A DNA stretch of 64,000 nucleotides from Bacteroidota bacterium (GTDB taxonomy: Bacteria > Bacteroidota > Bacteroidia > Bacteroidales > JACABE01): contig JAPLDQ010000005.1 of the NCBI GenBank assembly GCA_026391675.1, positions 1 to 64,000 of the forward strand. The letters are read 5' to 3'. The notes under the pieces are model-generated. The model was given only the letters and a program-made list of their open reading frames with translations. It was not told the origin of the DNA and ran no database searches. Position 1 is the stretch's first letter. Each line of letters begins with the position of its first letter. Made by a program: the position numbers and the translations under genes. Below are positions 8,846-16,208 of this stretch, piece after piece.

Positions 8846-9157
8846 TTATTTTTTAAGTTTGATTACCAATAACTTCAGGTCTGCTTCATTTGTGTTTTCC
8901 CAACCTCTGTTAATCCCAGTTTTCATGGGAATGCAATCTCCTTTTTTAAATTGAAATTTCTCATTTTCAACCGTTAATTCACCTTCACCTTCATCAACAA
9001 AAAATACAACATCCACAGGGTTTGAGTGCGGGTCAATTTTATCTCCTTTTTTTATTGTTAAGTGAACAATATCAACGGTATCACCTGCAAATAATAGTCT
9101 TCCGTCAAATTTAGGTGCCATTAACGGGGCTGTACTTAAGTTGGTTGAATTGATCAT
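8846..9157 (-). CDS. Cupin-domain protein, second of a pair
   Basis: The protein is a single small beta-barrel of 103 residues with cupin-like sequence (DPHSNPVDVVFFVDEGEGELTVE, then GDCIPM). The canonical metal-binding histidines are only partly present: one His in the first motif and none in the second, so metal-dependent catalysis is doubtful. Its start overlaps the end of the preceding cupin gene by 4 nt (ATGA type), which shows translational coupling. It is the last gene of the transcript that begins with NO reductase. Its role in NO stress is inferred from position only. Confidence 0.8.
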   Translation of the reverse strand: MINSTNLSTAPLMAPKFDGRLLFAGDTVDIVHLTIKKGDKIDPHSNPVDVVFFVDEGEGELTVENEKFQFKKGDCIPMKTGINRGWENTNEADLKLLVIKLKK

Positions 9158-9888: not shown

Positions 9889-12132
9889 TTATTTTTTAAT
9901 AGACCAACCGGCTTTTAATCCGATAACAAAATATACCAGACCAAGGCTGCCGAATGCAAAAATTGTATCTCCAAATACCCTCATCCATCTGAAAGTTGAC
10001 ATTGCGGGACTTTGCATAAATTCCATTGAACGTGCATACCAGATACCATGATCTACAGAAGCAATGGTTTGTAAAATCCCAACAGGAAGCAAACTTAATA
10101 AGAGCATCAGCATCATACCAATCTGAAAACACCAGAATGAGAATTTCAGTACCTTTTCGTTCCATTCCTGTGTAACGGTCATTCCTCTTAAAGAGAACAA
10201 CATCAGACCTATACCGAGCATACCATATACGCCAAACAATGCTGCATGACCATGTAATGGTGTTGTATTAAGACCTTGCATATAATACAATGCAATAGGA
10301 GGGTTAATCAGGAATCCGAAAATACCTGCACCTACCAGATTCCAGAATGCAACTGCTATGAATGAATATATGGCCCATTTATACTTTTTAATCCAGACTG
10401 TTGTTTTTGTAAGCTGATAATTATGCCAGGCTTCGAAACCCATCAACACAAGCGGCACAACTTCCAGTGCGCTGAATGATGCTCCAAGGGCTATAATTGA
10501 CATGGGTGCTCCGGCAAAATATAAGTGATGGAAAGTACCGATAATTCCGCCTAATAAATAGATGATAGTTGCAAACAATGAACCCAGTGTTGCTCTTTTA
10601 ATGTTTAATAAACCAAGTTTTACAAGAACAAATGCAATAACTGTAGTAGCAAATACTTCAAAGAAACCTTCAACCCATAAATGAACTACCCACCATCTCC
10701 AGTATTCTGCAACTGAAAGATGCGCCTGACGGCCGTACATTAAGCCTGCACCATAAAAAGCTGCAATGGCAATGGATGAAATGGTAAATAATATCAATAA
10801 CTGACGGCTTTCCGATTTTATTTTTAATGCAGGTAACAAAGCACGTATCATTAAAAACAACCAGATCAGCAATCCGCCGAACAGTAGAAATTGCCAGAAT
10901 CTGCCTAAGTCAACATATTCATAACCCTGATGACCAAAATAAAAATTCTGAATTAAGCCTAATTTTTGCATTACACCTAACCATTCACCGGCCATAGAGC
11001 CCAGAACAACAATTAATAATGCACCAAATAAAAGATTAACACCGAATTTCTGATATTTTGGTTCATAACCTGAAACAGCCGGTGCAATAAATAATCCTGT
11101 AGCCAGCCATGCGGTTGCTATCCAGAATATAGCCAATTGCACATGCCATGTTCTTGAGATAGTATATGGTAATATTGAATCCAGTTTTAAACCGTAAAAT
11201 CCATTGCCTTCAACACCAAAATGTGCCGTTATAATTCCAACAATAACCTGTAATAATATTAATCCGCTAACTATCCAGAAATATTTAAGCGTTGCTTTCA
11301 TTGAAGGAGTTGCTTTCAGATTAATCAATGGATCTTTTTCAGGATATTCCTCTACATCGGTATTTTGATCTTTGGTTTTTGCATAATAAAGACCTAATAG
11401 TCCAACACCCAATAATAACATAACAATACTGAACAATGACCAGAACAAGTGTTTTCCTGTTGCATGATTTCCAATCAAATCATCGCCGGGCCAGTTGCTT
11501 GTATAGGTAATTTCCTTGCCTGGACGTTCTGTAACGCAAGCCCATGCTGCCCAAAAGAAGAATGCATTCATCTTGTGCATACTGGCTTCATTTTTTATTG
11601 TATTTTCGGGTAACGCATAAGCAAGTCTGGTTTTTTCCAGTTCCTTGCCGTTTGTGAATAAATCCCTGTAATATTGCATATTTGCCTTAATAGCTTCAGC
11701 TCTCAGATTTGAAACTTTCAGGCATTGAGTTGCTTCATCATAAGTGTTCTTACGAATATCCTTTTGCAGGACTGATTTAAGGTAAGCCTGTTTTTCAGGA
11801 CTTTCCTTTTCATAGGTTGTTGAGTCGTATCTGTAAGCTAATTTGTCAAGCATAAATAATGCTTCACGGTGCAGCCAGTCAGCTGACCAGTCAGGTGCAA
11901 CATAAGCACCATGCCCCCATACAGTTCCCATTTCCTGTCCACCTATTGATTGCCAAACACTCTGGCCATCCTTAATTTCAATTGATGAGAATAGTTGTTC
12001 TCCACTTTCTGAAATAACTTTTTCCGGAATTGGTGGTTTCTGAACATAGATTTCATATCCAAAATACAGCAAAACCGAAAAAGAAAATACCATAACGCTA
12101 ATAAATGCAATCCATAATTTTTTTGTTTTCAT
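9889..12132 (-). CDS. norZ: Quinol-dependent nitric oxide reductase (qNOR)
   Basis: qNOR reduces two NO to N2O using quinol at the cytoplasmic membrane. The 747-residue single-chain form has an N-terminal periplasmic domain without a CxxCH haem motif (about 30-220). A NorB-like haem-copper-oxidase core of about a dozen helices follows. Candidate haem and iron ligands are visible in RTWHVQLAIFW, EYWRWWVVHLWVEGFFE, GTFHHLYFAGAP and HGHAALFGVYG. The fused N-terminal domain and missing haem c distinguish it from cytochrome-c-linked NorCB. It leads a transcript with ygbA and two cupins, and its promoter shares a near-identical block with that of the Rrf2 gene, so it is probably NO-induced. Confidence 0.96.
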   Translation of the reverse strand: MKTKKLWIAFISVMVFSFSVLLYFGYEIYVQKPPIPEKVISESGEQLFSSIEIKDGQSVWQSIGGQEMGTVWGHGAYVAPDWSADWLHREALFMLDKLAYRYDSTTYEKESPEKQAYLKSVLQKDIRKNTYDEATQCLKVSNLRAEAIKANMQYYRDLFTNGKELEKTRLAYALPENTIKNEASMHKMNAFFFWAAWACVTERPGKEITYTSNWPGDDLIGNHATGKHLFWSLFSIVMLLLGVGLLGLYYAKTKDQNTDVEEYPEKDPLINLKATPSMKATLKYFWIVSGLILLQVIVGIITAHFGVEGNGFYGLKLDSILPYTISRTWHVQLAIFWIATAWLATGLFIAPAVSGYEPKYQKFGVNLLFGALLIVVLGSMAGEWLGVMQKLGLIQNFYFGHQGYEYVDLGRFWQFLLFGGLLIWLFLMIRALLPALKIKSESRQLLILFTISSIAIAAFYGAGLMYGRQAHLSVAEYWRWWVVHLWVEGFFEVFATTVIAFVLVKLGLLNIKRATLGSLFATIIYLLGGIIGTFHHLYFAGAPMSIIALGASFSALEVVPLVLMGFEAWHNYQLTKTTVWIKKYKWAIYSFIAVAFWNLVGAGIFGFLINPPIALYYMQGLNTTPLHGHAALFGVYGMLGIGLMLFSLRGMTVTQEWNEKVLKFSFWCFQIGMMLMLLLSLLPVGILQTIASVDHGIWYARSMEFMQSPAMSTFRWMRVFGDTIFAFGSLGLVYFVIGLKAGWSIKK

Positions 12133-12167
12133 TTTTTTATTGATTTAATTAATAATTATTTTATAAG

Positions 12168-12194
12168 TTAAATGTAAAAAGGTACGACAATACC
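12168..12194 (-). promoter_or_regulatory. Candidate NO-responsive promoter/operator of norZ
   Basis: The plus strand reads TTAAATGTAA, three A, then GGTACGACAATACC (12181-12194), a dyad GGTA..TACC with some imperfection. On the minus strand a near -7 box (TACATTTA) lies about 36 nt before the norZ ATG and the dyad falls in its spacer. The block recurs upstream of the Rrf2 gene at 13550-13576. Confidence 0.55.
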
Positions 12195-12210
12195 AAAATA
12201 TATATTTAAA

Positions 12211-12244
12211 AAAATGTAATTCAAAAATCATTAAATTACATTTT
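12211..12244 (-). terminator. Terminator of the Rrf2-ferredoxin operon
   Basis: The arms AAAATGTAATT (12211-12221) and AATTACATTTT (12234-12244) enclose a 12-nt loop and are followed on the minus strand by further U. It lies 20 nt past the ferredoxin-type gene. An operator role is an alternative because part of the arm resembles the shared promoter block. Confidence 0.6.
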
Positions 12245-12263
12245 GTTTATGATTAACAGCTGA

Positions 12264-13127
12264 TTAAACCCAGTCTTCCTGTATTGTTTCTCCCTGTAAG
12301 CCAATAATTGTTAGTTTTAATGGAATTTTTCTTGTAGCATTAGCTGATGCTTTTTTAGCAATTTGCAATAAACCACCGCAACATGGAACTTCCATGATGA
12401 CTACATGCAAGGTGTTGATTTTTGCCAGATCAATCATAGCAGTTAATTTTTCAACGTAAATTTCCATGTTAGAATCTAATTTAGGACAAGCTATGGCAAT
12501 GCTTTTACCTTTCATAAACTTATTATGAAAATCACCTACTGCAAAAGCGGCACAATCTGCTGCCATTAATACATCAGCACCTATAAAATAGGATGCCTGA
12601 GGATTTACTAAATGTAATTGAACCGGCCACTGTGCTAATTCTGAAGGAGCTGAAAAATCTCCGTTTGATGTTTCTTCTGTTTTAACTGCTCTGAAATCTT
12701 TTTCTGATGATCCCGGACATCCGCAAAAACTTCCGTGTGCTGATTCTTCGTGTTTTTCTGTTGTTGTCATGTTGTTTAAATTTATATTAATATTATTTTT
12801 ATTTAAATATGCTATTGCCTGAGCTACAAATTCATCTTGTTTATGGTCTTTTAAATGCATTAAATGCGCCTTTATAGTTGCTTCTCCTTTTTCAACCATG
12901 CGTGCAATGGTTTTAATTTCGTCATAAGCTTCAGCTTCTCTTTCTTCCAATTCAATAGCTCCTTCAGGACAATCTCCTATACATGCGCCTAAACCGTCGC
13001 AATACAATTCACTGATCATTCTGGCTTTGCCATCTATTAACTGCAATGCACCTTCGTGGCATCCTTTTACACATAAACCACAGCCATTGCACAACTCTTC
13101 ATCAATTTTAATTATTGTTCTTTTCAT
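12264..13127 (-). CDS. 4Fe-4S binding protein of the NO-response locus
   Basis: The 287-residue protein begins with a bacterial ferredoxin-like domain. Cluster 1 ligands are C13, C16, C19 and C23. Cluster 2 is unusual, with C43, C49 and C53 in CDGLGACIGDC. A helical linker and a third cysteine-rich stretch, CGCPGSSEKDF, follow. The C-terminal half holds ALV-rich segments with CPKLDSN and VPCCGGLLQ, typical of proteins I recall beside hybrid-cluster protein (hcp) genes. No hcp is present here. It lies 18 nt behind the Rrf2 regulator and is probably co-transcribed. A role in electron transfer or NO sensing and repair is inferred. Confidence 0.85.
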   Translation of the reverse strand: MKRTIIKIDEELCNGCGLCVKGCHEGALQLIDGKARMISELYCDGLGACIGDCPEGAIELEEREAEAYDEIKTIARMVEKGEATIKAHLMHLKDHKQDEFVAQAIAYLNKNNININLNNMTTTEKHEESAHGSFCGCPGSSEKDFRAVKTEETSNGDFSAPSELAQWPVQLHLVNPQASYFIGADVLMAADCAAFAVGDFHNKFMKGKSIAIACPKLDSNMEIYVEKLTAMIDLAKINTLHVVIMEVPCCGGLLQIAKKASANATRKIPLKLTIIGLQGETIQEDWV

Positions 13128-13145
13128 TAGTATGATAATTTTGTT

Positions 13146-13544
13146 TTATATTAAATCTGATATTCTTGTCGATTTTAAATATGCTTTTAACTCGTTTGAC
13201 AGTTTGCTCGCCAAGCCTCCAAAAATACAGTCTTTAAACGGGCATACAGCACAGTTTCCCATACAGCTTAAATCTTCAATACTTCCATCTATTAATTCAT
13301 AAATTTCAAGCAGGTAAATTTCTTTAGGATTTCTTCCTAACATAAATCCTCCTTTTGGCCCCCTGTCTGATACCAATAAACCAAACTTTGTTAGTTGATG
13401 CATCACCTTTGCAAGATGATTTTTAGAAAAATTTGATACTTTTGCCAAGTCAGATGCATTTAATTTCTCTTTCGATTTTGCAACGGTAATCATACTCTGT
13501 ATGGCTATTGATGCTGCTTCTGATATATTTACTATTCTACTCAA
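13146..13544 (-). CDS. Rrf2 family transcriptional regulator (NsrR/IscR-like)
   Basis: This 132-residue DNA-binding protein has the Rrf2 winged helix: N-terminal VNISEAASIAIQSM, recognition region LAKVSNFSKNHLAKVMHQL, and wing RGPKGGFMLGR. It also carries four cysteines in a tight group (C94, C98, C101, C106) able to ligate an iron-sulfur cluster. Such clusters sense NO in NsrR. The start is TTG at 13544, which agrees with typical family N termini. The neighbouring genes, NO reductase and YgbA_NO, make NO the likely signal. A promoter block matching that of norZ directly precedes this gene, consistent with autoregulation. The operator assignment is inference. Confidence 0.92.
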   Translation of the reverse strand: MSRIVNISEAASIAIQSMITVAKSKEKLNASDLAKVSNFSKNHLAKVMHQLTKFGLLVSDRGPKGGFMLGRNPKEIYLLEIYELIDGSIEDLSCMGNCAVCPFKDCIFGGLASKLSNELKAYLKSTRISDLI

Positions 13545-13549
13545 AATAT

Positions 13550-13576
13550 TTAAATGTAATTAGGTATTTGAATACG
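13550..13576 (-). promoter_or_regulatory. Candidate operator/promoter of the Rrf2 gene
   Basis: The plus strand reads TTAAATGTAA, TTA, then GGTATTTGAATACG, whose core GTATT-TG-AATAC is a perfect small dyad. It aligns without gaps to 12168-12194 upstream of norZ. The near -7 box TACATTTA lies only 6 nt before the TTG start, so the mRNA would be nearly leaderless if this is the promoter. Confidence 0.55.
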
Positions 13577-13751
13577 CAAATATATATATAAAATGATATT
13601 GAATCCAAATTTTTTTTCAATTATTTTGTTAAAAAATAAAAAATAGTTTGTAAATATCAGCAGTACAGCACTATAAAAGTGTAAATATTTATTGTAAAAT
13701 AATATAAACCTGATTTTCAAATAATTTTTTATAAAAAAGTTTATTTATAGT

Positions 13752-15608: not shown

Positions 15609-16208
15609 ATGACTAAAATAAACTGGAAACCCGGAACTATGGTATATCCCCTTCCTGCTATTATGGTAAGTTGTGGCGCAACTGAAGAAGAATATAATAT
15701 TATAACCATAGCCTGGACAGGAACGATATGTTCAAATCCACCGATGTGTTATATATCAGTTCAACCGCGCAGGCATTCTTATGAAATATTGAAAAAGAAC
15801 ATGGAATTTGTAATCAATCTCACCACAAAAAAACTTGCTTTTGCAACAGACTGGTGTGGTGTTAAATCAGGAAAGGATTTTAATAAATTCAGAGAAATGA
15901 AATTAACGCCTGCTAAAGCCCAGGTTGTAAAAGCCCCATTAATTGCAGAATCTCCTGTAAATATCGAATGTGTGGTAAAAGAAATAAAATCTTTAGGTTC
16001 TCATGATATGTTTATTGCTGAAGTAGTTGCAATAAATGTAGATGATCAGTATTTAGATCCAAAAACTCAGGCTTTTGATATGACAAAAGTTGGACTTATT
16101 TGTTATTCTCATGGCAAGTATTTTAACGTAGGAGATTTTTTAGGAGGATTTGGTTTTTCAGTTATGAAACCTAAAACAAAAAAGAAAAAGTTAAAGGAAA
16201 ATATATAA
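15609..16208 (+). CDS. Flavin reductase-like (FMN split-barrel) protein
   Basis: The 199-residue protein fits the flavin-reductase/flavoredoxin family: an N-terminal strand with PLPAIMVSCGA, then ITIAWTGTICSNPPMCYISVQPRRHSYE that forms the FMN site, and NFVINLTTK-like and GVKSGKDFNKF segments further on. Proteins of this type bind FMN and transfer electrons, and some reduce flavin with NAD(P)H. A basic tail (KPKTKKKKLKENI) follows the fold. There is no signal peptide, so it is cytoplasmic even though both neighbours are exported. It starts 12 nt after the beta-helix gene and may be co-transcribed, but no functional link is apparent. Confidence 0.9.
   Translation: MTKINWKPGTMVYPLPAIMVSCGATEEEYNIITIAWTGTICSNPPMCYISVQPRRHSYEILKKNMEFVINLTTKKLAFATDWCGVKSGKDFNKFREMKLTPAKAQVVKAPLIAESPVNIECVVKEIKSLGSHDMFIAEVVAINVDDQYLDPKTQAFDMTKVGLICYSHGKYFNVGDFLGGFGFSVMKPKTKKKKLKENI

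What the first reader, a model, noticed from the sequence alone, without database searches (positions are those of the whole stretch)
12168..13576. Shared promoter block and dyad at both NO-regulon promoters
Upstream of norZ and of the Rrf2 gene the plus strand aligns without gaps over about 38 nt: TTAAATGTAA, then three variable bases, then a GGTA...TAC dyad, then an A/T-rich tail. About 80% of positions match, far more than the rest of the gaps. The dyad sits between a near -7 box (TACATTTA) and a TTTG -33-like element, which is where a repressor would block RNA polymerase. This is a candidate operator for an Rrf2/NsrR-type NO sensor in Bacteroidota.
Basis: partly seen in the sequence, partly recalled or inferred. 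Interest (0 to 1): 0.65.

Follow-up and report, generated by a model that had tools for sequence, protein, structure and literature searches.

The report
Rrf2 operator at nitric-oxide gene promoters
Two promoters of a nitric-oxide-detoxifying gene cluster in an uncultured Bacteroidota bacterium share a short palindrome that recurs in front of the same regulator and partner genes in many relatives, so it is very probably the DNA switch on which the local Rrf2-type repressor sits.

Summary
In detail: the two blocks match at 30 of 38 positions. A matrix trained only on other genomes ranks these two places first and second in the window, 38.0 and 17.9 bits, next locus 9.6. The dyad lies about 41 nt before Rrf2 genes linked to a ferredoxin-like gene (Fd), hcp or norZ in 59 of 63 named Bacteroidota loci, 47 of 51 outside training. 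It precedes several Fd genes and, more weakly, 7 of 37 norZ genes examined including this one, five convincing by eye. Of 37 norZ genomes, 13 of 22 with this Rrf2 and 0 of 15 without it have a strong site.

Correction: the sigma-ABfr promoter (TTTG-N19/21-TATATTTT/G) lies upstream of the dyad, which follows the -7 box over the likely start site.

Best reading: an autoregulated, NsrR-like Fe-S repressor. Its operator GYAT-N4-ATRC has the NsrR half-site with a spacer one base shorter; it fails two NsrR membership tests. Binding, cluster and NO sensing are inferred.

The parts
13146..13544 (-). Rrf2-family regulator (132 aa, TTG start), cysteines 94, 101, 106 invariant among 42 aligned rows
   Evidence: PF02082 90.1 bits against cut-off 30; alignment
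13564..13575 (.). core operator dyad GTATT-CA-AATAC at the rrf2 promoter
13557..13584 (-). full 28-nt conserved element (-7 box plus operator) at rrf2
   Evidence: 29.3 bits, E 3.6e-6, best place in the whole genome; 38.0 bits with the matrix
13577..13584 (-). -7 box TATATTTG of the rrf2 promoter
   Evidence: TAnnTTTG in 20 of 30 training and 49 of 52 held-out sites
13606..13609 (-). -33 TTTG of the rrf2 promoter (N21 to the -7 box)
12264..13127 (-). ferredoxin-like protein (Fd), 287 aa, ferredoxin domain plus C-terminal extension; next gene after rrf2
   Evidence: synteny
12181..12194 (.). operator dyad GGTA-TTGTCG-TACC at the norZ promoter
12175..12202 (-). 28-nt element at norZ
   Evidence: 17.9 bits, 8 of 50000 shuffles; only 8.8 bits in the covariance model
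12195..12202 (-). -7 box TATATTTT of the norZ promoter
12222..12225 (-). -33 TTTG of the norZ promoter (N19 to the -7 box)
9889..12132 (-). norZ, quinol-type nitric oxide reductase, 747 aa
   Evidence: PF22085 and PF00115
9491..9799 (-). ygbA-like gene, downstream of norZ
   Evidence: PF11756 140.4 bits
9154..9486 (-). cupin protein, recurrent in the cluster
   Evidence: PF07883, synteny
8846..9157 (-). second cupin protein, recurrent in the cluster
   Evidence: PF07883, synteny

Best explanation
The dyad is the operator of the Rrf2 protein encoded at 13146-13544. A dimer, probably carrying an Fe-S cluster on Cys94, Cys101 and Cys106, binds the palindrome that starts in the -7 box and covers the start site, and so blocks RNA polymerase at its own promoter (rrf2-Fd) and, through a weaker variant, at norZ-ygbA-cupin-cupin. 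NO (or a related nitrogen oxide) damages the cluster, the dimer leaves, and the NO-removal genes are made. Shown by sequence: the conserved palindrome, its place relative to a canonical promoter, its concentration at this gene cluster, its co-occurrence with the Rrf2 gene, and its presence at norZ here and in some other genomes. Inferred: binding, repression, cluster, start site and NO as signal.
For: Of 63 named-genome Rrf2 genes linked to Fd, hcp or norZ, 61 reach 10 bits and 59 reach 15; of 17 unlinked, 6 and 5; 0 of 1600 shuffled upstreams reach 10. With the 12 loci that are training contigs removed, 49 and 47 of 51; none of these 51 repeats a training gene, though 5 have a 28-mer identical to a training one. 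Of the 30 best model hits over 148 whole genomes, 27 lie before rrf2 or Fd; of the 12 that were not training sites, 9 do (tallied by eye). In this genome the rrf2 site is the best place by far, E 3.6e-6, next 0.018. Of 37 norZ genomes, 13 of 22 with the Rrf2 and 0 of 15 without it have a site at E<=0.002, Fisher p 2.3e-4; at E<=0.05, 16 of 22 and 1 of 15, p 1.2e-4. norZ: 7 of 37 upstreams have a site at shuffle p<=0.017, all seven in Rrf2-bearing genomes. In G393 the two best sites of the genome, at a modest E of 0.016 and 0.019, are at norZ and rrf2. Promoter: TAnnTTTG in 49 of 52 and TTTG at N18-22 in 24 of 52 held-out sites (shuffle mean 2.6, maximum 9).
Against: 30 of the 37 norZ genes examined have no such site; some sit beside a different Rrf2-like gene (L063, L072) and several have a different motif. 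The window norZ site scores only 8.8 bits in the covariance model and is not in the genome-wide list down to 9.4 bits. 10 of 35 cluster-linked Rrf2 genes (window and relatives) have fewer than 13 of 18 consensus matches before them, though in 4 of these genomes the site stands before Fd and in 1 before hcp. Named linked loci L327 and L336 have no site. G170 and G240 have an Rrf2 hit but no site at E<=0.05. Some paralogous Rrf2 genes carry the site, 6 of 22 in their clade. The co-occurrence test is partly circular, since training sites came mostly from Rrf2 promoters, and its 0.002 cut-off was set after seeing the list. No binding or NO data.
Confidence: 0.8

Rival explanations
1. The Rrf2 protein binds the operator, but the signal is not NO: it reads redox state, oxygen or iron, as RsrR, IscR or RirA do, and the cluster is induced only indirectly.
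For: The nearest solved structures are RsrR, CymR and IscR, with NsrR lower in the list. The NsrR family model scores 32.4 bits against a cut-off of 182, below IscR's 50.2.
Against: The linked genes are Hcp, a quinol NO reductase and ygbA in many families, all tied to nitrogen oxides by established knowledge. Neighbours were labelled with only eight reference proteins, so Fe-S assembly or redox genes nearby would have gone unlabelled.
Confidence: 0.2
2. The palindrome is the site of another regulator, and Rrf2 is merely a gene under its control.
For: Binding was not tested; a master regulator elsewhere could also explain a site at rrf2.
Against: The site goes with the Rrf2 gene: 13 of 22 against 0 of 15 genomes. 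In the 10 genomes without an Rrf2 hit whose Fd start was examined, Fd upstreams score 0.2 bits or less; G165, G073 and G107, with a strong Fd site and no adjacent Rrf2, have one elsewhere. Of 395 genomes drawn across the phylum, 3 including this one have a hit at E<=0.001; the other two, of the same class, have no reference cluster gene nearby. HcpR, FNR-like and NsrR consensus sites were not found in the gaps before norZ, rrf2, Fd and ygbA.
Confidence: 0.08
3. Only the rrf2 site is an operator; the norZ block is a promoter look-alike or a decayed copy of the rrf2 promoter.
For: Low covariance-model score; the right half GTACC departs from AATAC; the TTAAATGTAA flank shared by the two window sites is not conserved in relatives, as a recent local copy would give. 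Counting only the five norZ sites convincing by eye, their tie to the Rrf2 gene is p 0.067.
Against: 8 of 50000 shuffles. GGTA-N6-TACC also stands before norZ in G098 and G199, GGTA-N6-TACT in G393 and GGCA-N6-TACC in G229, genomes of three other families. In G104 and G043 norZ simply follows rrf2-Fd.
Confidence: 0.17

Closest known systems
NsrR (Rrf2-family NO-sensing repressor; operator gATGyAT-N5-ATrCATc, PMC1274295, passages)
   Same: Rrf2 family and fold, three C-terminal cysteines, association with hcp and NO-removal genes, half-site GYAT/ATRC.
   Different: Spacer of 4, not 5; outer flanks TATTT...AAATA; cysteines C-X6-C-X4-C; NCBIfam NsrR model far below cut-off; only one gene cluster found as target in this genome.
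HcpR/HcpR2 (CRP/FNR-family regulator of hcp in Bacteroides; GTAACnnnnGTTAC, PMC1274295, passages)
   Same: Controls hcp in the same phylum.
   Different: Unrelated protein family; its motif is not in the window gaps.
RsrR, IscR, CymR (other Rrf2 regulators with solved structures)
   Same: Predicted fold.
   Different: Different regulons and operators (recalled, not tested here).
sigma-ABfr promoter (TTTG around -33, TAnnTTTG at -7; PMC7366714, passages)
   Same: The rrf2 promoter fits it; the norZ promoter fits with one mismatch in the -7 box.
   Different: The palindrome downstream of and overlapping the -7 box is an added element.

Membership tests
Rrf2 family (PF02082) | profile match above gathering score | tested here: met
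   90.1 bits against 30; TIGR00738 92.4 against 73.3
NsrR | NCBIfam equivalog model NF008240 | tested here: not met
   32.4 bits against 182
NsrR | operator gATGyAT-N5-ATrCATc | tested here: not met
   fewest mismatches 5 (rrf2 gap) and 6 (norZ gap) of 14; consensus here is GYAT-N4-ATRC
NsrR | three conserved cysteines in the C-terminal region | tested here: met
   C94, C101, C106 invariant in 42 rows
NsrR | Fe-S cluster and NO-driven release from DNA | not testable with these tools
   needs purified protein
NsrR | targets are NO or nitrite stress genes | tested here: inconclusive
   candidate sites at rrf2, Fd, some hcp and some norZ promoters; regulation itself not tested
HcpR | CRP/FNR-family protein, GTAACnnnnGTTAC site | tested here: not met
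   regulator is PF02082; at least 4 mismatches of 10 in each gap
sigma-ABfr promoter | TTTG then TAnnTTTG about 19-21 bases later | tested here: met
   rrf2 N21 TATATTTG; norZ N19 TATATTTT, one mismatch

The most novel reading that the evidence does not exclude
Bacteroidales carry their own Rrf2 NO-sensor subfamily, distinct from NsrR and standing where HcpR stands in Bacteroides, which reads an NsrR-like half-site with a one-base-shorter spacer fused to the -7 box; in this lineage norZ has been captured under it while hcp has been lost, so a transferred NO reductase took over the seat of Hcp through a weaker copy of the same switch.
Probability: 0.5. Interest if true: 0.6.

Novelty: new variant of a known kind. 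Interest (0 to 1): 0.5.

Why it matters
In the papers seen here NO control of hcp in Bacteroides runs through HcpR. Seven searches of an open-licence library (listings only) showed no paper that by its title or abstract describes an Rrf2 operator for hcp or norZ in this phylum; subscription papers were not searched. A defined 28-nt element and its likely regulator make the circuit directly testable, give a marker for finding NO regulons in uncultured Bacteroidales, and offer a natural one-base spacer variant for studying how Rrf2 proteins choose DNA.

Tried and rejected
A loose consensus scan of this genome (3 mismatches) gave 427 hits against 399 for the reversed control and was useless. The stricter pattern over 148 genomes gave 40 sites against 18 for the reversed pattern (controls summed by eye); of 14 non-cluster loci looked at, 11 have the site inside a coding frame of 100 or more residues (loci were fetched for only 29 sites, own site included as L031). 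Further regulon members in this genome: none convincing; the next-best place, C47:4327 at 17.8 bits, lies before a small lipoprotein-like frame. Three of the 30 best model hits over 148 genomes (G058, G053, G132) are not at cluster genes. Site before ygbA: none over 8 bits. HcpR-, FNR- or NsrR-type sites in the gaps: none. PADLOC: no match for Rrf2 or Fd. Spread: 31 of 148 relatives of the order at E<=0.001 (counted by eye) against 3 of 395 drawn across the phylum, this genome included; that draw holds some genomes of the same order and scored fewer candidates per genome, so it is less sensitive.

Rows dropped: training sites were best matches of 13 of 18 or more among cluster-linked Rrf2 promoters (24 of 34 non-window genes; one repeated 26-mer merged) plus 7 Fd or hcp sites. 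Two of these 30, one out of register and one doubtful, were left out of model R1 but kept in the 28-position matrix. For held-out counts 12 of 80 named loci were removed as training contigs, matched by eye on contig length and checked by sequence. The 37 norZ upstreams are those of the higher-scoring norZ loci; 30 lower-scoring or truncated places were not examined, and L070 has only 55 bases upstream.

Full report
What is there. On the minus strand the window holds rrf2 (13544-13146, TTG start), a 287-residue ferredoxin-like gene (Fd, 13127-12264), norZ (12132-9889), a ygbA-like gene and two cupin genes. The genome (G000, 4.04 Mb, 48 contigs, 98% complete) gave no hcp match. In relatives the same run is often rrf2-Fd-hcp with ygbA and cupins; in G043 it is rrf2-Fd-norZ-hcp and in G104 rrf2-Fd-norZ. 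So this looks like the Hcp cluster of the order with norZ in the place of hcp. Named relatives are Bacteroidota MAGs, most titled Bacteroidales, some Lentimicrobium; that the order is Bacteroidales is inferred from those titles.

The observation. The two 38-nt blocks match at 30 positions; 1 of 2000 dinucleotide shuffles and 2 of 1430 other upstream pairs in the window do as well. With a matrix from other genomes they are the two best places of the window; with a covariance model the norZ place is only fourth.

Conservation. Among 35 Rrf2 genes linked to Fd, hcp, norZ or a cupin in relatives and the window, 25 have at least 13 of 18 matches to TTTGCGTATTCAAATACC before the gene and 6 match it exactly, one of them beside a protein only 42% identical. 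In 80 named loci, 59 of 63 linked genes reach 15 bits, against 5 of 17 unlinked; 0 of 1600 shuffles reach 10. With training contigs removed, 47 of 51 reach 15; the 51 hold 38 distinct 28-mers, 5 of the 51 being identical to a training one. Invariant positions are symmetric: G10/C21 and A12/T19, and GYA..TAC holds in 51 of 52 held-out sites. A tree of 82 Rrf2 proteins has a well supported paralogue clade of 22 (16 without the site, including the second Rrf2 of this genome); of the other 60, 59 have it. The midpoint root does not show that these 60 are one clade.

Where else. The site stands before Fd where Fd has a gap of its own (L119, L120, L153, L171, L174), and a genome-wide model finds Fd promoters that were not in training in G107, G120, G067, G073 and G143. 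Some hcp promoters carry it (L099, L111). Of 37 norZ upstreams examined, 7 have a site at shuffle p<=0.017: window, G098, G199, G393, G017, G107, G229. The G017 and G107 sites are poor dyads, and G017 also carries the second motif described below, so five are convincing by eye. Of these, window, G098 and G199 are GGTA-N6-TACC, G393 GGTA-N6-TACT and G229 GGCA-N6-TACC. In G393 the norZ and rrf2 promoters are the two best places of the genome, at E 0.016 and 0.019.

Link to the regulator. Of 37 norZ genomes, 22 have this Rrf2 at E<=1e-15. A site at E<=0.002 occurs in 13 of those 22 and in 0 of the 15 others, Fisher p 2.3e-4; at E<=0.05 in 16 of 22 and 1 of 15, p 1.2e-4. For norZ sites, 7 of 22 against 0 of 15, p 0.028; for the five convincing ones p 0.067. 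Ten genomes without the Rrf2 whose Fd start was examined have Fd upstreams of 0.2 bits or less (G046, G128, G139, G198, G200, G221, G225, G249, G368, G377). Against this, G170 and G240 have an Rrf2 hit, no site at Fd and none genome-wide at E<=0.05. Genomes are related, training came mostly from Rrf2 promoters and the cut-off was set after seeing the list, so these p-values are guides.

Geometry. The window promoters read TTTG-N21-TATATTTG (rrf2) and TTTG-N19-TATATTTT (norZ), close to the sigma-ABfr consensus given in PMC7366714 (passages), and the palindrome follows at once. TTTG at N18-22 before the box occurs in 13 of 32 sites (shuffle mean 1.6, maximum 6) and in 24 of 52 held-out sites (2.6, maximum 9). 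The consensus is itself a longer palindrome, TATTT-nn-GYATT-nn-AATAC-nn-AAATA (read), so the -7 box doubles as the outer left arm. A bound dimer would cover the -7 box and the likely start of transcription.

Protein. Rrf2 domain, predicted model mean pLDDT 86, best solved matches RsrR, CymR and IscR, then NsrR. Cys94, Cys101 and Cys106 are invariant in 42 rows. Residues 91-110 have block confidence 62-66, so ligand geometry was not judged.

Comparison. NsrR sites are gATGyAT-N5-ATrCATc (PMC1274295, passages). The half-site here is the same GYAT/ATRC but the spacer is four. With the NsrR family model failed and the operator different, I call the protein NsrR-like in action, not NsrR. In Bacteroides the described hcp regulator is HcpR (PMC1274295, passages; PMC13370916, passages).

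Limits. No binding, transcription or NO data. The norZ site is the weaker claim. The lack of earlier reports rests on seven searches, listings only, of an open-licence library.

Noticed in passing
L066, L071, L072, L074, L075, L076 (norZ upstream regions of other genomes): Several norZ genes of the order carry a different dyad-like motif (AAAAGGACATACATGTCCTTTT, AAAGACCTTTTTGTCTTT); a loose pattern written after seeing them hits 10 of 37 upstreams against a shuffle mean of 1.3, maximum 6. Another Rrf2-like frame lies beside norZ in L063, L072, L080 and L081. This may be a second, NsrR-type norZ regulon.
   Followed up: partly
window 9889-13544 and whole genome G000: hcp was not found in the genome while its cluster partners remain, with norZ in its place; norZ is 88-91% identical to copies in G043 and G229, which belong to other families, suggesting transfer.
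   Followed up: partly
G000:C33:70856-71245 (L140): A second, 46% identical Rrf2 of the same genome, without the operator, falls in a paralogue clade; its target is unknown.
   Followed up: partly
L304 / L131 (G133:C24): An hcp-linked Rrf2 without a recognised Fd has the norZ-like variant GGTATTGTTTTACC before it, which hints at a sub-specificity.
   Followed up: no
window 12264-13127: The ferredoxin-like partner gene carries a C-terminal extension of about 200 residues with GCPG and CCGG stretches; the Pfam hits cover only its first part.
   Followed up: no
window 15609-16208: A flavin-reductase-like gene lies on the other side of rrf2, transcribed divergently, here and in G001 and G003.
   Followed up: no
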